Source of the DNA: Acidimicrobiales bacterium
GTDB taxonomy: Bacteria > Actinomycetota > Acidimicrobiia > Acidimicrobiales > SHLQ01
Length of the DNA stretch: 64,000 nucleotides
Reading direction: 5' to 3'
NCBI GenBank assembly: GCA_020629635.1
Contig: JAHDCX010000008.1
Location: forward strand, 1 to 64,000
Below, piece by piece: positions 24,142 to 32,301 of the stretch. The position numbers and the translations under genes were made by a program. The notes under the pieces were generated by a model. It saw nothing but the letters and a program-made list of their open reading frames with translations, did no database searches and was not told the DNA's origin. The stretch's first letter is position 1, and every line of letters starts with the position of its first letter.

Positions 24142-25380
24142 GTGAACTCCGAGCCGTTGCAAGATGACGTCATCGAGCTCCGCCTCGATCGTCCCGGAGG
24201 CGGCGCGGATGCCGTTGGCCGTGGAGACGACGGCAAGGTGGTGTTCGCCGGCGGCGGGCTCCCCGGCGAACTCGTTCGTGTCCGGATCGACGAGCGTCGG
24301 AAACGATTCGATCGTGGTCAGGTCGTCGAGGTGCTCGACGCGTCGCCGGATCGCCGAGATCCGGACTGCCCAATGGTCGACGAAGGCTGCGGCGGATGTG
24401 ATCTCGCACACGTGAGGGCGCCGGCGCAGCAGCAGTGGCGCTCGCACCTCGTCGCCGACGCGCTGGACCGAATCGCACGACTCGACAACCGTCCGCCGAT
24501 CCGGACCGGCCCGCTGTTCCTTCGGACCGCACGAACCACGGTGCGGCTCGGGATCGATCGGAAGGGGCGATTGGGTCATCGCCAGCGGCGTTCGAACGCC
24601 GTGGTCGCCCCGATCGAGTGCGGCGTCCTCGACCCGAACCTCGAGGCACTCGTCCGTACCGTCCGCGTCGGGAGCGTCGCTGACGATGACGAGGTGCTGG
24701 TTCGCTGGAGCGTGCACGACGGCCGCGGGTACCTCGTCGCCCCGGCAGCAGCGCGCGTCGAGATCGGCGAGTGGTCGGATCGTGTCGAGATCCACGGCCC
24801 GGACGCGTTTGGCGCGGGCAGTGGGGTCGAGCTCACCGAGCTGGCTGGAGGTCGCCTGTGGCGCGTGTCGGCCGGTTCGTTCTTCCAGGCGGGTCCGGCC
24901 GTCGTCGATGCGCTGGTCGACGTCGTCGACGCCATGCTCGACGAACATGCAGGGCCGTTGGACACGTTTGTCGACGCCTATGGCGGGATCGGGATCTTTG
25001 CCGGGACGGTCGGTCGCCGATTCGGTCATCGCATCGTGATCGAATCGTCGCCGTCATCGGTCGCCGACGCCCGTCACAACCTCGACGCCGACCGTGTCTC
25101 GTTCGTGGAGACTCGGGTCGAGCGGTGGAGCCCCGCATCTGCCGACGTGGTCGTTGCGGACCCCGCCCGGCGTGGCCTCGGCGAGGCGGCGGTCGAACGT
25201 CTGACGGCCACTGGCGCGACGACGCTGGTCCTCGTCTCGTGCGACATCGGCAGCATGGGCAGAGACGTCGGGCTGCTGAGCAGGGCCGGCTGGTCGCTCG
25301 AGGACGTCGTGATCGTCGACGCCTTCGTCGACACCAGTCACGCCGAAGTGGTCTCGAGACTGGGCCGAGCGGCCCTGTAA
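24142..25380 (+). CDS. TrmA/RumA-family RNA 5-methyluridine methyltransferase
   Basis: 412 residues from a GTG. An N-terminal TRAM-like segment (RGDDGKVVFAGGGLPGELV) is followed by Fe-S cysteines C76, C83, C86 and C160, then the SAM site FVDAYGGIGIFAGTVG, VVADPARRGLG, the catalytic Cys367 in LVSCDIGSMGRD and the final SHAEVVSRLGR with its Glu. This is the RumA layout with a 4Fe-4S cluster. It methylates a uridine in 23S rRNA or tRNA; the exact site cannot be told. Divergent from rpe by 32 bases. Confidence 0.9.
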   Translation: MNSEPLQDDVIELRLDRPGGGADAVGRGDDGKVVFAGGGLPGELVRVRIDERRKRFDRGQVVEVLDASPDRRDPDCPMVDEGCGGCDLAHVRAPAQQQWRSHLVADALDRIARLDNRPPIRTGPLFLRTARTTVRLGIDRKGRLGHRQRRSNAVVAPIECGVLDPNLEALVRTVRVGSVADDDEVLVRWSVHDGRGYLVAPAAARVEIGEWSDRVEIHGPDAFGAGSGVELTELAGGRLWRVSAGSFFQAGPAVVDALVDVVDAMLDEHAGPLDTFVDAYGGIGIFAGTVGRRFGHRIVIESSPSSVADARHNLDADRVSFVETRVERWSPASADVVVADPARRGLGEAAVERLTATGATTLVLVSCDIGSMGRDVGLLSRAGWSLEDVVIVDAFVDTSHAEVVSRLGRAAL

Positions 25381-25430: not shown

Positions 25431-28400
25431 ATGCGGCTGATCGTCGAGGACGGAGATCGGCGCCGCCTCGTCGACGTCGAGGCGGATCCGACCAGCACGG
25501 TCGCTCAGCTCGCGGCTGCGCTCGATCTTGTTGGCGATGAGGTCCTGATCGACGGCGTTCCGGTGCACCCAGGAACCCTCCTCGATGCGACCGACATCGT
25601 CGCCGGCACGGAGATTGCCTCGATGGCCTCAACCCCGACGGGCAGACCCGCCGCCGACGACTCCGACACGGCGATCGTGGTGACGAGCGGACCGGGCGCA
25701 GGAGAGCGGGTCGCGATCGGGCCGTCTCGACCCGTACGCATCGGTCGAGCGTCCGATGGGCGCAATGACCTGGTGCTGGACAACCCGACCGTCTCGATCG
25801 AGCACGCCGAGGCGACGTGTGTGCGGGACGGGATGGTCGTCCGAGACCTCGGTTCCAAGAACGGGCTGGTACGTCACGGCTCGCATTCCGACGAGATTGT
25901 GTTGTCGGCAGAGGCGGCCGATGACTTCGGTGCGCCGATCCATCTCGGCTCATCGACCATTGAGGCTCGTCGCCTGCGGGCCGACGATCGTCCGACTGGC
26001 GCCCACCCCCGCTTCCGTTCGAGCGCGGGGACGATCCTGGTCAACCGGCCTCCTCGTCGCCTGCCGCCGGCTCCCGCTGAGCCCATTCGCCGGCCGCCAC
26101 CTCTCGAAGAACGTGCCAATCCGACGTTGTCGCTGGCGGCGATGATCGCGCCGATCGTGTTCGCCGGCGTGATGGTCCTGCTTCTCGGGCGATGGCAGTA
26201 CGCGGTCTTCGCGTTGCTGTCTCCCGTGATGGTCTTCGCCAACTGGCTGTCGGCTCGGCGTCGGGTGCGTCGCGAAAGAGACGGAGACGTCGAGAGCCGT
26301 CAGGCCGCGCTCGACCGCGTCGAGCAAGAATTGATCGACCGACGCAATCGAGAAGCGAGGCGCCTGCACCACCTCGGTCCGGATCTCGACGAGATCCACC
26401 GGCGGGCACGCCTGCCGTCTCACCGGCTGTGGGAACGCCGCAGTCACCACGAAGACGCGTGGACGCTTCGAATCGGCCATCGGCGTTCGGCGCTGGTCGC
26501 CGAATTTGTGGACGCGAATGGCCGAGCAACCGACGACACCCTCGATCCTGAATGTCAGGCACTCGTCGACGCCCTCGAGCCAGTGGACGTGCCGGTCCTC
26601 GTCAATCTCGACGACGGCCCGGTCGGAATCGTCGCACCACCAGCGGTTGCTCGTTCGGCGTGTGCTGCGGTGATGCTGCAGCTCGTGGTGACGCATGGTC
26701 CTGCAGATGCCGCAGTGACGGTGGTGACGAGTGAGGATGCGCTCGACGAGTGGGCGTGGGTGGCGATGCTGCCGCACTCCTCGACCGGCGACGGCGGGGT
26801 GCGGGTCCTGACGGGCGCAGCGGCGAACGCGTGGGCGACGACGCGCCTGGGCGCCTCGGGTGATTCGGCCGGACCTCGAGATGTGGTCATCGTCGAGGAC
26901 CTCTCGTTGCTGCACGAGCGGGGGAGTGCGCTCCGGGGGTTGTATGAGCAGCCGGGAGCTCGGGCCACCGGCATCTTGTTGTCCACCGAGCGCGATCAGC
27001 TCCCGGCATCGGTTGGCTCGATCGTCGACATCGACGACGACGGCGCCGCCCAGCGTGATCCGCTCGACGCCAACCGCGAATCCATGGTGTTCGTCGCCGA
27101 CTTGCCAACCCGATCGCATCGAGAACGTGTGGCCCAAGCGGTTGCCCGTTGGCAGGACCCCGACGTCGATGCGGGCGACGTGTCGTTGCCGTCGAGCGTT
27201 GACGCCGCCGAGCTTTTCGGCGACGACGTGTTCGACGCCGAGTCGATCGGGCGACGCTGGCAGCTGCGCGACCGTCGGTCACTCGTGGCCCCACTCGGAT
27301 TCGGGTCCGGCGGAGCGGTGGAGGTCGACCTTGTCAGCGACGGCCCGCACGGTTTGGTCGCCGGAACGACCGGTGCCGGAAAGTCCGAGCTCCTCCGCAC
27401 CTGGGTGTTGTCGATCGCGGCGAACCATTCCCCCGAGGACGTCGTTTTCGTGCTCGTTGACTACAAGGGTGGTGCGGCATTCGACTGCTGCGCCGACCTC
27501 CCGCACGTCGTGGGCATGGTCACCGACCTCGATGGGCACCTTGCCGCACGCGCCCTCGTCTCCCTCGAGGCCGAACTCCACCATCGCGAACTGGTTCTCC
27601 GAGACGCTGGCGTATCCGACAGTTCAGACCTGCCGCTCGATGTCCGGCTGCCCAGGCTCGTTGTTGTCATCGACGAGTTTGCGACGCTGCGCGCCGAACT
27701 GCCGGACTTCATGTCGGCGTTGGTGGGCATCGCCCAGCGCGGCAGGAGCCTCGGCGTGCATCTGATTCTGGCCACCCAACGCCCATCGGGAGCCGTTGAC
27801 GCAAACGTCCGGGCGAACACAAATCTTCGGATCGCGTTGCGAGTGCAGGACCAGGGGGACTCGAAGGACGTCATCGACGACCCGGCGGCCGCCGAGATCG
27901 CTCGCCATCGGCCCGGACGATGCTGGGTGCGCCGTGGTGCGTCCGATCTCGTCGCAATACAGACGGCCTACGTTTCTGGCGGGCGCTCGACGGGCGCGTC
28001 GATGGTGCGGGTTGGGCCGGTTCTGCTCGGGTCTGGCGTGGCAGCGCCCATGGAATCGCCAGTCGAGCGATCTGGCGACACGGAGTTGCAACTGATCGTC
28101 GATGCCATCCGGGCGGCTGCAGAGTCACAGGCGTCACCTCGACGTCCCTGGCTTCCGGAGCTACCCGACGCGCTGTCACTCGCTGATCTCTGTGCCGACA
28201 ACAACCATCAGGCCGACAACAACGACGGTGATGTCGTGCTCGGGCTTGCCGACCATCCGAACGAACAAGCGCAACGACCGTGGACCTGGCCGTCGCTGGA
28301 CGGCCACCTCCTCGTGGTCGGTGCGCTCGGAAGCGGCGTTTCGACGACGCTGTGGACGGCGGCCAGCCAACTCGCGACGCGCGGAGACTGGGTCTACGTG

Positions 28401-29564
28401 GCGGACGAAGGTGGCGCGCTCTCGGCATTCGGCGATCGCGTCGCCGGCCTCGTGTCCGCCGGTGACGTCGCCCGACATCGGCGGCTGCTCACCGTGCTCG
28501 CGCACGAGCTCGACGAGCGACAGGGGTTGCGCGTCGACGAGGCGCGTGCCCGACCGTCCATCCGGTTGATCATCGATGGTGTTGGCTCGTTCATGGACAC
28601 GGCTCAGACGGAGTCGGGTGGCGAGCTCGGCGATGCCTTCGCCCGACTCGTCCGCGACGGCCCCGGTGTCGGCATGACGATGGTCGTCGGTGCCGCTTCA
28701 GCGGCGGAGCTGCCTCGGCCGTTACGTGGGGGAGCCCGCCACACGGTCGTTCACGAACTCACGGATCGAAGCGATCTCGGTGCCTTCGGCCTTCGCCCCA
28801 AGGACGTGCCGACGTTGCCGCCGGGACGGGCGGTGCACGCCCCGAGTGGTGTGCTCCTCCAGGTCGCCAGGTCGACGCTGCCGAACGTCGAGCCACCGAT
28901 CGACGCTCCCGCCGTCGACCTCCTGCCCACGGTGGTGAGGCTCGAGGACCTCCCGCCCGCATCGGTCGATCCGGATCTGCGCGTACCGGTCGGGATCCTC
29001 GAGCTGGACCGAACGCCTGCAACGTTGCTGGCGAGGACGGGGGAGGCCGTGCTGATCAGCGGTCCCGCCGGGAGTGGGCGTACGTCGACGCTGCGGACGA
29101 TCGCTCGCTCGGCGAGAGCCGCGGCCAGTGAGCTCGTGATGGTCGGGGTTGGACCCGATGCCGAGCGTGAACTCGCCGACATCGGTCTCGACGCGGTGGG
29201 TACCCACGAGGACCTCCATGCCGTACTCGAGGTCGCCGCGTCGGACGAACGACGTTGGTTGATCCTCGTCGACGACGCCGACCGGCTCGAAGACGCCGCA
29301 GATCTGGCCGACCTCGCGAGCTCGCGTCATCCCGCGGTCACCGTCGTCGCGGCCGGGTTGACCCCTGCGCTGCGGCAGTCGTACGGCCATTGGGCGCGTC
29401 GCCTCGGTGGTAGCGGTGTCGGCGTGTTGTTGCACCCCGAGCCCGCCGACGGCGAGCTGCTCGGCGTCCGCCTGCCTCGTTCGCTCGAGGTGGACCGCGT
29501 TCCGGGACGAGCGTTTCTCGCCATTCCCGGCGAGGTCGCCGGGGTCGTCCACGTCGCGACCTGA
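25431..29564 (+). CDS. EssC/EccC-type type VII secretion ATPase with YukD and FHA domains
   Basis: 1377 residues from the ATG at 25431. Order: a YukD-like ubiquitin fold (1-62, RLIVEDGDRRRLVDVEAD ... GVPVHPG), an FHA domain (about 75-180, with IGRASDGRNDLVLDNPTVS and DLGSKNGLV), two membrane helices (about 225-270) and three FtsK/SpoIIIE ATPase modules. Walker A of module 1 is canonical (AGTTGAGKSELL, near 644) with Walker B LVVVIDEFATL. Modules 2 (GALGSGVSTT, near 963) and 3 (GPAGSGRTST, near 1210) lack the lysine and are degenerate. It should power export of WXG-type proteins; one follows 136 bases downstream. No other T7SS core gene is in the window. Confidence 0.92.
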   Translation: MRLIVEDGDRRRLVDVEADPTSTVAQLAAALDLVGDEVLIDGVPVHPGTLLDATDIVAGTEIASMASTPTGRPAADDSDTAIVVTSGPGAGERVAIGPSRPVRIGRASDGRNDLVLDNPTVSIEHAEATCVRDGMVVRDLGSKNGLVRHGSHSDEIVLSAEAADDFGAPIHLGSSTIEARRLRADDRPTGAHPRFRSSAGTILVNRPPRRLPPAPAEPIRRPPPLEERANPTLSLAAMIAPIVFAGVMVLLLGRWQYAVFALLSPVMVFANWLSARRRVRRERDGDVESRQAALDRVEQELIDRRNREARRLHHLGPDLDEIHRRARLPSHRLWERRSHHEDAWTLRIGHRRSALVAEFVDANGRATDDTLDPECQALVDALEPVDVPVLVNLDDGPVGIVAPPAVARSACAAVMLQLVVTHGPADAAVTVVTSEDALDEWAWVAMLPHSSTGDGGVRVLTGAAANAWATTRLGASGDSAGPRDVVIVEDLSLLHERGSALRGLYEQPGARATGILLSTERDQLPASVGSIVDIDDDGAAQRDPLDANRESMVFVADLPTRSHRERVAQAVARWQDPDVDAGDVSLPSSVDAAELFGDDVFDAESIGRRWQLRDRRSLVAPLGFGSGGAVEVDLVSDGPHGLVAGTTGAGKSELLRTWVLSIAANHSPEDVVFVLVDYKGGAAFDCCADLPHVVGMVTDLDGHLAARALVSLEAELHHRELVLRDAGVSDSSDLPLDVRLPRLVVVIDEFATLRAELPDFMSALVGIAQRGRSLGVHLILATQRPSGAVDANVRANTNLRIALRVQDQGDSKDVIDDPAAAEIARHRPGRCWVRRGASDLVAIQTAYVSGGRSTGASMVRVGPVLLGSGVAAPMESPVERSGDTELQLIVDAIRAAAESQASPRRPWLPELPDALSLADLCADNNHQADNNDGDVVLGLADHPNEQAQRPWTWPSLDGHLLVVGALGSGVSTTLWTAASQLATRGDWVYVADEGGALSAFGDRVAGLVSAGDVARHRRLLTVLAHELDERQGLRVDEARARPSIRLIIDGVGSFMDTAQTESGGELGDAFARLVRDGPGVGMTMVVGAASAAELPRPLRGGARHTVVHELTDRSDLGAFGLRPKDVPTLPPGRAVHAPSGVLLQVARSTLPNVEPPIDAPAVDLLPTVVRLEDLPPASVDPDLRVPVGILELDRTPATLLARTGEAVLISGPAGSGRTSTLRTIARSARAAASELVMVGVGPDAERELADIGLDAVGTHEDLHAVLEVAASDERRWLILVDDADRLEDAADLADLASSRHPAVTVVAAGLTPALRQSYGHWARRLGGSGVGVLLHPEPADGELLGVRLPRSLEVDRVPGRAFLAIPGEVAGVVHVAT

Positions 29565-29590
29565 GCGCTCGTCGGAATCCACGTACTCGA

Positions 29591-29686
29591 ATGCTTTTCG
29601 ACATCTTTCCGCGCTCGTGTTGACATTCCCCTGCCTGTGAAGTACATCTGATGACACCGATAGGCACAAAAAATATCGAAAAGCAT
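29591..29686 (+). promoter_or_regulatory. Promoter of the WXG gene flanked by an inverted operator pair
   Basis: TTGACA at 29620-29625 and TACATC at 29643-29648 (17-base spacer) make a good sigma-A-type promoter. It is bracketed by an 18-base inverted repeat matching at 16 positions: ATGCTTTTCGACATCTTT at 29591-29608 and, on the other strand, ATGCTTTTCGATATTTTT at 29669-29686. The AT-rich words stand out against the local GC. One site is upstream of -35 and the other between the start point and the ribosome site, a layout suited to a looping repressor or to separate activator and repressor sites. Confidence 0.65.
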
Positions 29687-29700
29687 GAAAGGGGCCAGCA

Positions 29701-30195
29701 ATGGCGATCATCGGAGGCAACCTGAACGACATCGCGGCGAGTGCGTCGCGGCTCGACGACTCGGCGCTCATGGCGTTGCAGACGCAGGAGCAGACCAAGG
29801 GTGCCGGAGGGGTGCTGCAGGATGCCGTCACCGACGCCACGCAGCAGCTGATCACCCAGTTCCAGGAGATCGCGTCGTCGATGGTGGGGGACATCGAACA
29901 ATCCCACCGGGTCCTCGCCGGCGCCGACTGGAATGGGCAGTCGCAGCGGAACGCAATTGCGATCAAGGAGCAGCTCAAGGCCGAGGTCGGACGCGTGCTC
30001 GACGAGGCAACGCTGGCGTTCCAGGCCGAGCAGCGCGCTTTCAACGGACGCGCTGCGGAGCTGATGGCCCAGATCGACGGATCGTTCGGTCAGGTGATGA
30101 AGCAGGTCGACGTGCAGTACCGAGACCTCGCTACTGCCGCCAAGACGATGCGCGACAACCTCGAGGCCGCCGACCAGACGATCCGGATGGGCTGA
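29701..30195 (+). CDS. WXG100-like type VII secretion substrate
   Basis: 164 residues, almost entirely helical and heptad-like, with the hairpin motif W77-N78-G79 (AGADWNGQSQ) between two long helices. This fits the WXG100/LXG superfamily, though it is longer than the usual 100 residues because a third helical stretch follows (about 95-160). It starts with ATG after AAAGGGG. No C-terminal YxxxD/E secretion signal is evident. Its place directly after the EssC-like ATPase supports a substrate or partner role. Confidence 0.78.
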   Translation: MAIIGGNLNDIAASASRLDDSALMALQTQEQTKGAGGVLQDAVTDATQQLITQFQEIASSMVGDIEQSHRVLAGADWNGQSQRNAIAIKEQLKAEVGRVLDEATLAFQAEQRAFNGRAAELMAQIDGSFGQVMKQVDVQYRDLATAAKTMRDNLEAADQTIRMG

Positions 30196-30252: not shown

Positions 30253-31038
30253 TCAGCCTCCGCTCCAGTCGAGCTCGATCACCAGTGGCGCATGGTCCGA
30301 CGGACGTTCGGCCATGCGCCACGCGGTGTCCGGACGACACGACGACGCCGCCGCTCGCACTCCATCGCTGGCCAACGCGAAGTCCAGCCGATAGCCGAGC
30401 CCACGCTCGAGTTGTTCGGCGCTGTGGGAGAACCAGGTGTAGCCCGGCTCGTCGGGGTGGCAGGATCGCCCGAGGTCATGGAGACCGACCTCACACAACC
30501 GGTCGAACGCCGCTCGCTCGTCAACGCTCGTCAGGTTGCGGCTGCCGTTGATCGGCTTCCACAGATCGATCGCTGCCGGGCACACGTTGAGGTCGCCGAG
30601 GAGAAGAAGATCCGGTTCCCCGACGAGCGTTTCTTCGGCCTCGATCCGCAGCAGCTCGAACCAGGCGAGTTTGTGTCTCCACTCGGCGCTGCGATAGCGC
30701 CGACCATTCGGCGCATACACCGAACCCACCCGGATCCCCTCCACGTCTCCGAGCAGGAGCCTCGGCTCGTCGAACGGAGGACCGTGCTCGCCGTGAAAGC
30801 CCCACTGGACCCGGTCGAGGCCGCTTCGACTCAGAAGGGCAACGCCGGCATGGCCATGGCTCCCGCCGAGGTGCGCCCACTCGAAGCCCAACGCTTCGAA
30901 CGCCGCTGACGGAAACTGCGCGTCAGAACATCGGGTCTCCTGCAGCGCCACCACATCGGGATCGAGCTGGTCGATCAGGCTCTCGACCAGTGGCAGCCGG
31001 GACCGGATCGAGTTGACGTTCCACGAGACGAGTCGCAC
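30253..31038 (-). CDS. xthA: Exodeoxyribonuclease III (AP endonuclease)
   Basis: 261 residues with the GTG at 31038 as start (VRLVSWNVNSIRSRL, the standard family N-terminus); a longer form from 31071 is possible. Catalytic and metal motifs are SWNVNSIR, ALQETRC, VYAPNGRR, LLLGDLNVCP, YRLDFALAS and the final RPSDHAPLVIEL. It removes abasic sites and 3' blocks in base excision repair. It converges with the WXG gene. Confidence 0.94.
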   Translation of the reverse strand: MRLVSWNVNSIRSRLPLVESLIDQLDPDVVALQETRCSDAQFPSAAFEALGFEWAHLGGSHGHAGVALLSRSGLDRVQWGFHGEHGPPFDEPRLLLGDVEGIRVGSVYAPNGRRYRSAEWRHKLAWFELLRIEAEETLVGEPDLLLLGDLNVCPAAIDLWKPINGSRNLTSVDERAAFDRLCEVGLHDLGRSCHPDEPGYTWFSHSAEQLERGLGYRLDFALASDGVRAAASSCRPDTAWRMAERPSDHAPLVIELDWSGG

Positions 31039-31128
31039 CGCCTCACTCTGCCGCGCCGGTGCGACAATCACCGCCGAGCTCGAAGAAACCGGTCAGGCTG
31101 CCGCGCCGGAGGACCGAACATTGTCGAC

Positions 31129-31320
31129 ATGAGGGCGTTGATCAATCGACCTGGCGTCTCGTTGTTCGCCGTTGGTGTGGTCCTCGTGATCGCGGTACGC
31201 CAGATCGTCGGTGCGATCTGGCTGATCGGTGGATTCCTCTCGACGGCTGCCGTCCTCTCGGGCGTCGCGGCGATTCTCGGCGGGGGAGCATTGATCTTGC
31301 TCGCCGCGCGCCGGACCTGA
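31129..31320 (+). CDS. Small two-helix membrane protein
   Basis: 63 residues: a polar start (MRALINRPGV), two hydrophobic helices (SLFAVGVVLVIAVRQIVGAI and FLSTAAVLSGVAAILGGGAL) and a basic end (AARRT). The positive-inside pattern and ATG start support a real small protein. No family recognised. It lies 33 bases upstream of the GAF-LuxR gene on the same strand and may be cotranscribed with it. Confidence 0.5.
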   Translation: MRALINRPGVSLFAVGVVLVIAVRQIVGAIWLIGGFLSTAAVLSGVAAILGGGALILLAARRT

Positions 31321-31353: not shown

Positions 31354-32301
31354 GTGGCGCTGCGAAACGACACGAACGGTGAACCGGCCGACACTGAATC
31401 GACTCGACTTCAGCACGTGGAGGCGATGTGTGAAGACCTCGTGCCGGAGTCGGTTGTCGACTCGGTCGGGGCGTCGCTGCGGCGTTCACTCGACGCCGAC
31501 GTTGGCTTCGTCGGCCTGGTCGACGACGATGCGACGTTGACGCTCGGCTCAGTCGCCGGTGGGCGCGTCGGCGCCCTGGATGGCATGCGCGTCGAGTCCG
31601 GCAATGGGCTCGGCGGCCAGGTGCTCGCGACGGAGACACCCGCGTCCGTCGAGGACTACGTCCGCTCGACCGAGATCACCCATGAACACGACGCGGAGGT
31701 CGAACGCGAAGGGGTTCGAGGGCTGGTCAGCGTTCCCCTCGTGGTCGCCGGCGACGTCCTTGGAGTCGCCTACGTGGGCTTTCGCCGTCCCTTCGAGTTC
31801 ACCGACCGGGCGATCTCCGAGGTCATGACCGTCGTCGAGTCCGCGTCGGTCGCCATGACGCTCGCGGAGCGGGCGCGGACAATGCGCGACGAGGCGGCGA
31901 GATCGGCGCGCGAAGCGGCGATGAACGACGTGCGCGATGCGCTCGACCCCCAACTCGCTGCGCTGGTCGACGGGATCCGAGACATCGTCGGCGATCCGGC
32001 CGCGGATCCGACCATCGTCGAGAAGGCGTCGCGATTGCTCGGTCAGACGATTCGTACGCGTGCCGCCATCGGGGAGGATCTTCCGGCTCCCGAGCGCGAG
32101 GCCGCACCCTCTCCCTTGACCCCGCGCGAGACCGAGGTCATTCGGTTGGCGGCGACCGGCGCCACCAACGCGCAGATCGCCGAATCCCTCTTCCTTGCGC
32201 ACGGCACCGTCAAGGCCTACATGGAATCCGTGCTCCACAAACTCGGGGCCCGAAATCGGGTCGAGGCGGCGATGATCGCCGCCGGGTTGGATCTGCTGTA
32301 G
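31354..32301 (+). CDS. GAF-domain LuxR-type transcriptional regulator
   Basis: 315 residues from a GTG. A GAF sensor spans about 40-180 (VGFVGLVDDDATLTLGSVAG, GNGLGGQVLATETPASVEDY, VRGLVSVPLVVAGDVLGVAY). A linker helix follows, then a C-terminal LuxR helix-turn-helix (LTPRETEVIRLAATGATNAQ, then IAESLFLAHGTVKAYMESVL). The ligand is unknown. It lies 138 bases upstream of the fadD-liv operon, so control of that operon is possible. Confidence 0.92.
   Translation: MALRNDTNGEPADTESTRLQHVEAMCEDLVPESVVDSVGASLRRSLDADVGFVGLVDDDATLTLGSVAGGRVGALDGMRVESGNGLGGQVLATETPASVEDYVRSTEITHEHDAEVEREGVRGLVSVPLVVAGDVLGVAYVGFRRPFEFTDRAISEVMTVVESASVAMTLAERARTMRDEAARSAREAAMNDVRDALDPQLAALVDGIRDIVGDPAADPTIVEKASRLLGQTIRTRAAIGEDLPAPEREAAPSPLTPRETEVIRLAATGATNAQIAESLFLAHGTVKAYMESVLHKLGARNRVEAAMIAAGLDLL

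What the first reader, a model, noticed from the sequence alone, without database searches (positions are those of the whole stretch)
25431..30195. YukD-FHA-EssC fused ATPase with a lone long WXG partner
The ATPase carries a ubiquitin-like YukD domain and an FHA domain ahead of the EssC core. In firmicutes YukD is a separate protein. Only the first ATPase module keeps the Walker lysine. The single downstream WXG-like protein is 164 residues, not about 100. No EccB, EccD, EccE or mycosin is in the window. This looks like a minimal type VII-like system.
Basis: partly seen in the sequence, partly recalled or inferred. Interest (0 to 1): 0.6.

Follow-up and report, generated by a model that had tools for sequence, protein, structure and literature searches.

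The report
Ubiquitin-fused two-gene type VII core
This bacterium carries what looks like a protein-export pump cut down to two genes, with a ubiquitin-like part welded onto the motor protein instead of being a separate piece; the same welded motor recurs in other actinobacteria and I did not find it described.

Summary
Window 25431-29564 encodes a 1377-aa EssC/EccC-type ATPase: a ubiquitin-like (Ubl) domain (residues ~1-66), an FHA domain (~78-181), a membrane segment and three FtsK modules, of which only the first keeps the Walker lysine. Window 29701-30195 encodes a 164-aa protein predicted as a long helical hairpin with W77-N-G79 at the turn. The genome has no second EssC/EccC and no EccB, EccD, mycosin or separate YukD above curated cut-offs.

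It is not peculiar to this genome. About 80 of 198 genomes of the order have such an ATPase. The fused Ubl was detected in 26 of 38 long ATPases from named non-Bacillota records (Streptomyces, Nocardioides, Arthrobacter and others) and in 0 of 27 from the Bacillota-type set. WXG-like genes cluster beside it. The long WXG form is in 9 of 9 genomes of the genus.

Best reading: a minimal type VII-like export core, ATPase plus WXG partner, with the EsaB/EccD Ubl built into the motor. Secretion is inferred, not shown. The papers I read place the actinobacterial YukD domain only in EccD. New variant of a known kind.

The parts
25431..29564 (+). Ubl-FHA-membrane-(FtsK)x3 ATPase of the EssC/EccC type, 1377 aa
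   Evidence: ORF and start; TIGR03928 EssC 443.9 bits (cut-off 778), EccCa 316.6 (cut-off 509); PDB YukB 9qks E 3.7e-59
25431..25628 (+). ubiquitin-like domain, residues 1-66
   Evidence: AF2 strand order b-b-a-b-b-b; profile hits to ubiquitin family in PDB; Pfam YukD in 5 of 28 homologues
25662..25973 (+). FHA domain, residues 78-181, with R106, S122, H125, N144 (recalled as the phosphothreonine-binding set)
   Evidence: Pfam FHA; structure match Z 17.0; residues
26121..26249 (+). membrane segment, residues 231-253 clearly hydrophobic, a second weaker stretch to ~273
   Evidence: Kyte-Doolittle scan; second helix by eye
27363..27386 (+). Walker A of FtsK module 1 (GTTGAGKS, residues 645-652), the only one with lysine
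   Evidence: lysine in 54 of 54 order ATPases
28320..28343 (+). degenerate Walker A of module 2 (GALGSGVS, residues 964-971)
29061..29084 (+). degenerate Walker A of module 3 (GPAGSGRT, residues 1211-1218)
29591..29608 (+). left arm of an 18-nt inverted repeat (16 of 18) upstream of the WXG promoter-like site
   Evidence: found nowhere else in the genome with up to 3 mismatches
29669..29686 (-). right arm of the same inverted repeat, in the presumed leader of the WXG gene
29701..30195 (+). elongated WXG-like helical hairpin, 164 aa, W77-N-G79 at the turn
   Evidence: AF2 helices 2-73 and 80-163, pLDDT 85; conserved W and G in relatives; Pfam WXG100 in 7 of 14 relatives, best 0.0044

Best explanation
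A reduced type VII-like secretion core of two genes. The ATPase sits in the membrane through its N-terminal hydrophobic region and assembles as a ring of EssC/EccC-like subunits. Its first FtsK module is the working motor; modules 2 and 3 have lost the Walker lysine and probably serve as docking and regulatory domains for the WXG protein, as in EccC/EssC. The Ubl domain, which in Bacillota is the separate protein EsaB/YukD and in ESX systems is part of EccD, is built into the motor and packs against the ATPase core. The FHA domain keeps the residues for binding phosphothreonine and links the pump to one of the cell's Ser/Thr kinases. The 164-aa protein forms a dimer of long helical hairpins and is the core substrate and activator (the EsxA role). 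Shown here: sequences, predicted folds, conservation, linkage, genome-wide lack of the recognised ESX parts named above. Inferred: ring assembly, dimer, secretion, the role of each domain.
For: ATPase family; module-1 Walker lysine in 54 of 54 order ATPases, while modules 2 and 3 keep it in only 12 and 17 of 54. Ubl and FHA folds. WXG-like hairpin. Linkage: 49 WXG-like ORFs in 350 kb within 4 kb of the ATPase against 3 in 273 kb at 4-8 kb, over 49 order loci. Long WXG in 9 of 9 genus genomes, next to the ATPase in 8 of them, the ninth cut by its contig end. No EccB, EccD, mycosin or YukD over cut-off, with the EccB model working in 4 of 7 named genomes. Nine Ser/Thr kinase matches over the cut-off in the genome. 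In assembled ESX-5 the EccD Ubl touches EccC's first nucleotide-binding domain (stated in PMC11217815).
Against: No secretion data. The WXG protein itself does not reach Pfam's WXG100 cut-off (11.8 of 27.3 bits) and lacks the YxxxD/E motif recalled for ESX substrates (0 of 14 relatives). The ATPase is below the NCBI cut-offs for EssC and EccC. Of 46 named loci with enough flank, 23 have no WXG-like ORF within 4 kb, so the linked pair is not universal outside the order. Unlinked accessory proteins cannot be excluded.
Confidence: 0.6

Rival explanations
1. A full T7SS whose other membrane parts are encoded elsewhere in the genome and are too diverged, or of new families, to be recognised.
For: T7SSc-j each use different, often system-specific membrane proteins (PMC11217815). 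EssA, EssB and EsaA were not searched genome-wide. EccE had no working control.
Against: In the order loci the neighbours other than WXG change from lineage to lineage and mostly look like housekeeping genes by eye, so no third linked partner is conserved. No EccB or EccD above cut-off.
Confidence: 0.25
2. Not a secretion system: a membrane FtsK-family machine with another task (DNA handling or phosphorylation-controlled envelope signalling) whose WXG partner acts inside the cell.
For: FtsK family; no recognised substrate gene beside it in this genome; the 164-aa hairpin is unusual.
Against: Nearest families are EssC and EccC, well ahead of FtsK (443.9 and 316.6 bits against 67.6); PDB best hits are T7SS ATPases; some relatives sit beside Rhs or WXG-headed proteins, as reported for T7SS loci.
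Confidence: 0.1
3. A decaying remnant of an ESX or Ess system.
For: Two of three Walker motifs are degenerate; most known partners are missing.
Against: Both ORFs are intact in the genus loci read; the module-1 motif and FHA residues are kept in 7 of 7 genus ATPases examined; the same Ubl-FHA-ATPase plan is present across the phylum. Loss of the lysine in both modules 2 and 3 is common, 29 of 54.
Confidence: 0.05

Closest known systems
T7SSb EssC/YukB with separate EsaB/YukD (Bacillota)
   Same: EssC is the best-scoring family for the ATPase; FHA ahead of the membrane region; a Ubl protein and a single WXG protein belong to the system; PDB YukB is a top hit
   Different: Ubl is fused to the ATPase and takes the place of the first of EssC's two FHA domains; no EssB, EssA or EsaA recognised beside it; no Ubl found in 27 Bacillota-type ATPases by the same profile
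T7SSa / ESX (EccB, EccC, EccD, EccE, MycP)
   Same: EccC-type motor; Ubl present in the machine; same phylum
   Different: the Ubl of ESX is part of EccD; EccB, EccD, mycosin not found; EccC has no FHA (PMC11217815)
T7SSd (Olsenella, Bifidobacterium; PMC11217815)
   Same: Actinomycetota; EssC-type ATPase with FHA; single WXG
   Different: T7SSd is reported to have no Ubl at all and to include a kinase (TsdD), TsdH and a large TsdI; none of these lies beside the locus here
Solo WXG with a three-domain YueA-like ATPase, called 'mobile versions of T7SS' (table footnote in PMC3482391)
   Same: idea of a WXG-ATPase pair without the other parts; three FtsK domains of which one is active
   Different: there the middle domain is active and the hosts are proteobacteria and others; here the first is active, the locus looks inherited in place, and the ATPase carries Ubl and FHA

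Membership tests
Type VII secretion (general) | membrane-anchored EccC/EssC-type FtsK ATPase | tested here: met
   (below the NCBI equivalog cut-offs of EssC and EccC, but these are the best families)
Type VII secretion (general) | WXG-type helical hairpin partner encoded beside it | tested here: met
   hairpin with WxG at the turn, conserved W and G, linkage control
Type VII secretion (general) | ATPase-dependent export of the WXG protein | not testable with these tools
   needs a secretion assay
WXG100 (Pfam PF06013) | match over the curated cut-off | tested here: not met
   11.8 bits of 27.3; 7 of 14 relatives match weakly, best 0.0044
T7SSa / ESX | EccB | tested here: not met
   no match in own genome; the model rings in 5 of 10 genomes searched, 4 over cut-off
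T7SSa / ESX | EccD | tested here: not met
   18.8 bits of 94.95; no control genome rang
T7SSa / ESX | mycosin | tested here: not met
   37.2 bits of 278.75
T7SSa / ESX | EccE | tested here: inconclusive
   no match, but no control rang
[quoted passage not shown]
   Ubl then one FHA
T7SSb / Ess | separate EsaB/YukD gene | tested here: not met
   no YukD over cut-off in own genome
T7SSb / Ess | EssA, EssB, EsaA | not tested
T7SSd | no ubiquitin-like protein; kinase TsdD, TsdH and large TsdI in the cluster | tested here: not met
   Ubl present; neighbours are a 23S rRNA methyltransferase relative, exonuclease III and a GAF-LuxR regulator

The most novel reading that the evidence does not exclude
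The Ubl-FHA-EssC ATPase defines a further subtype of type VII secretion native to Actinomycetota, in which the Ubl subunit is permanently tethered to the motor; in the order of this genome it has shrunk to one ATPase and one WXG protein, the smallest form I know of, and in this genus the WXG protein has grown by more than half, perhaps making up for missing envelope parts by reaching further through the pore.
Probability: 0.4. Interest if true: 0.75.

Novelty: new variant of a known kind. Interest (0 to 1): 0.52.

Why it matters
The role of the small Ubl protein in T7SS is an open question: PMC11217815 calls EsaB essential but its precise role unclear. A natural tether fixes its stoichiometry and place and makes it testable on one polypeptide. 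A two-gene system would also be the simplest setting in which to ask what an EssC-type motor can export without EccB/D/E or EssA/B/EsaA. It also qualifies the statement that the actinobacterial YukD domain is always fused to a 12-helix membrane domain (PMC1779556).

Tried and rejected
Single-protein scan of genome contigs with the ATPase found no relative, probably because the peptides chosen were too specific; repeated with alignment A5.

Pfam scan of ten further N-termini from named records: one YukD hit (L131, E 0.014), one SAMP2 (L112, 0.0018), one UBX (L115, 0.061), the other seven nothing or unrelated families. Single sequences are too diverged for Pfam; the profile A4 is what detects them. 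This is a weakness: the Ubl label outside the order rests mainly on our own profile.

Fold comparison of the 164-aa hairpin is not specific: Z 9-11 to many coiled coils; LapD2, a T7SSb partner protein, is in the list (Z 9.7, rmsd 2.8, 109 residues) but tied with unrelated rows. The Ubl part was not searched on its own against solved structures; FHA fills the lists.

Promoter: a TTGACA-17-TACATC site lies 52 bases before the WXG start, and 6 of 7 genus loci have a similar best site 48-53 bases before theirs, but the window's score is reached in 14% of simple shuffles and the stricter scanner lists none. Suggestive only.

A 52-aa ORF at 31162-31320 was considered as a third component; it has no convincing match in six genus loci.

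The search of the own genome for the inverted repeat, hoping for co-regulated substrates, found only the two arms themselves.

In the tree 127 of 132 ATPases were used, five short ones dropped; it is a quick LG+G4 tree with composition and long-branch warnings.

In the WXG linkage counts the short-WXG profile was built from clusters found near ATPases, so the near count is partly circular; the far count with the same profile is the control.

Full report
What is there. The window (contig 6 of a 4.45-Mb genome in 37 contigs, 96.5% complete) holds a 1377-aa ATPase at 25431-29564 and a 164-aa protein at 29701-30195, 136 bases downstream on the same strand. The ATPase starts at an ATG with a good ribosome site. 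On either side lie a relative of 23S rRNA uracil methyltransferases (24142-25380) and, downstream, exonuclease III (30253-31071, minus) and a GAF-LuxR regulator (31354-32301). A tRNA-Leu and a tmRNA are; other neighbours look like housekeeping genes by eye.

The ATPase. Its best families are EssC (TIGR03928, 443.9 bits, cut-off 778) and EccCa (316.6, cut-off 509), against 67.6 for FtsK; the best PDB hits are an EccC-type ATPase (4nh0) and B. subtilis YukB. It is therefore of the EssC/EccC type without being a member of either NCBI equivalog. Among 54 ATPases of the order, module 1 has the lysine in 54, module 2 in 12 and module 3 in 17; 29 lack it in both 2 and 3. A strongly hydrophobic segment is at 231-253.

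The N-terminus. AF2 with an alignment of 28 homologous N-termini gave two confident domains (mean pLDDT 88): 2-64 with strand-strand-helix-strand-strand...strand order, which is the order listed for YukD and ubiquitin in PMC1949818 (passages), and 80-181, an FHA domain (Z 17.0 to 3gqs, Z 15.8 to GarA; Foldseek E 5.6e-8 to GarA). A profile of the 28 first domains (A4) hits SAMP2, redesigned ubiquitins and ubiquitin-like proteins first, and EccD Ubl domains at 0.019, 0.14, 0.23, 1.5 and 3.6; Pfam YukD hits 5 of 28 members. The window's own copy alone hits no Ubl family in Pfam. I take the Ubl fold as established at the level of prediction, and the YukD/EccD identity as likely from context. The FHA domain keeps R106, S122, H125 and N144, which I recall as the phosphothreonine-binding set; 26 of 54 order ATPases keep all four, including 7 of 7 from the genus. 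The genome has nine Ser/Thr kinase matches over the cut-off.

The WXG protein. AF2 predicts two long helices, 2-73 and 80-163, with W77-N-G79 in the loop (pLDDT 85 for the best of five models, which ranged from 69 to 85). It is a stretched version of the ~100-aa hairpin. W77 is present in at least 90% of 14 aligned proteins and G79 in all. Its own Pfam WXG100 score is only 11.8 bits (E 0.31), though 7 of 14 members hit the family weakly. In 397 genomes of the order, 24 have a match to the long form at E 0.01 or better, of which 19 are below 1e-6 by my count of the listing; all 9 genomes of the genus are among them and none of the 8 other genomes of the family. In 8 of the 9 it lies next to the ATPase; in the ninth it sits at the end of a contig. 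In a quick tree of ATPases the genus and three further order members (L044, L096, L097), which all have the long form beside the ATPase, form one set of 10 rows (SH-aLRT 99). The long form also occurs apart from an ATPase, for example twice in tandem in L101, and beside an ATPase in L104, which was too short for the tree.

How common the fusion is. In 198 order genomes, about 80 have an ATPase match at E 1e-30 or better (counted by hand); weaker hits are mostly FtsK-like. Of 26 order ATPases not used to build the Ubl profile, 17 have the Ubl (E below 0.01), and four more show it when the longest ORF is read (L052, L059, L067, L069). Of named records, 27 of 51 outside the Bacillota-type set have it, or 26 of 38 among those longer than 1300 aa, and 0 of 27 in the Bacillota-type set (that set includes one record labelled Deltaproteobacteria). 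Hosts include Actinoplanes, Curtobacterium, Demequina, Kineosporia, Cellulosimicrobium, Microbacterium, Nocardioides, Streptomyces, Microbispora, Nonomuraea, Arthrobacter and Pseudarthrobacter. In the tree 100 rows, all but two of the non-Bacillota rows, separate from the Bacillota-type rows with SH-aLRT 99.

Linkage with WXG. Over 49 order loci, WXG-like ORFs number 49 in 350 kb within 4 kb of the ATPase and 3 in 273 kb at 4-8 kb. Among 40 order loci with at least 2 kb on both sides, 35 have such an ORF within 4 kb (a few of these are overlong ORFs that overlap the ATPase, so this is an upper figure). Among named records with such flanks it is 23 of 46. No other neighbour is shared across the order, but within lineages the surroundings are stable (beside a gene that looks like groEL in three loci, and beside lysA/argS-like genes in six; names by eye), which points to vertical inheritance.

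Missing parts. Genome-wide: EccB none, with the same model ringing in 5 of the 10 genomes, four over the cut-off (two Streptomyces, Actinomadura and Actinoplanes hosts), but not in the window's genome, two order relatives, or the Curtobacterium and Pseudarthrobacter genomes that also have the fused ATPase. EccD 18.8 of 95 bits, mycosin 37 of 279, YukD none over cut-off, WXG100 none over cut-off. EccE no hit but no control rang. EssA, EssB and EsaA were not searched.

A control element. The space before the WXG gene holds an 18-nt inverted repeat (29591-29608 and 29669-29686, 16 of 18; 0 of 60 Markov shuffles as good) around a TTGACA-17-TACATC site. Two other genus loci have the same layout (L093 16 of 18, 0 of 60; L094 14 of 18, 2 of 60); the other four do not stand out. 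In the whole genome the motif occurs only here. The WXG gene thus probably has its own regulated promoter.

Mechanism. From these facts and established knowledge of EccC/EssC (PMC11217815, parts 1-5 of 7 read), I infer a ring of ATPase subunits driven by module 1, with Ubl tethered on the motor, FHA as a phosphorylation input and the hairpin dimer as substrate and activator. None of these last steps is shown.

Literature. Searches gave no paper that I could see describing a Ubl fused to EssC/EccC; most of the listed papers I saw only as titles and abstracts. [quoted passage not shown] PMC11217815 describes T7SSa-j, with the Ubl separate or, in T7SSa, in EccD, and none in T7SSd. PMC3482391 (passages) mentions solo WXG with a distinct three-domain ATPase. 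The library lacks most subscription journals and all bioRxiv preprints, so absence here is not proof.

Verdict.

Noticed in passing
window 29591-29686: 18-nt inverted repeat (16 of 18) around a promoter-like site before the WXG gene, absent elsewhere in the genome; same layout in two other genus loci (L093, L094).
   Followed up: partly
L056 8017-13695 (minus): One order relative has a Ser/Thr kinase domain (residues 19-268), Ubl (461-525), FHA (542-633) and the EssC-type ATPase on one 1892-aa chain; its FHA lacks the usual binding residues.
   Followed up: partly
L110 13419-19901 (minus): Rhs protein with a predicted RNase A-type toxin domain and a papain-fold domain close to the ATPase-WXG pair of another order member; Rhs-like proteins also beside L045, L048 and L111 by eye.
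   Followed up: partly
L071 14128-15264 and L074 5767-7368: WXG-headed longer proteins near the ATPase: one with an alpha/beta hydrolase domain (378 aa), one of 533 aa with unknown C-terminus; candidate substrates.
   Followed up: partly
L101 9403-11996 (minus): Two long WXG genes in tandem next to a 478-aa cutinase/DUF900-type hydrolase, with no ATPase in the 20-kb stretch.
   Followed up: partly
L138, L188, L120, L126, L163 (genes upstream of the ATPase): In Arthrobacter-, Nocardioides- and Cellulosimicrobium-type loci the fused ATPase follows genes that look by eye like PP2C phosphatase, FHA protein and Ser/Thr kinase (clusters c7, c4, c3, c5).
   Followed up: no
L064, L067, L074, L075, L108: Genes that look by eye like MoxR ATPase, DUF58 protein and transglutaminase precede the ATPase in several order members.
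   Followed up: no
L049 12488-14506 (minus), L054: A ~650-670-aa protein without any Pfam match lies just upstream of the short WXG and ATPase in another genus of the same family; its N-terminus looks WXG/LXG-like by eye.
   Followed up: partly
L184 3461-12115: A 2884-aa ORF holds the ATPase match in an uncultured-bacterium record and branches at the base of the Bacillota-type side; not examined.
   Followed up: no
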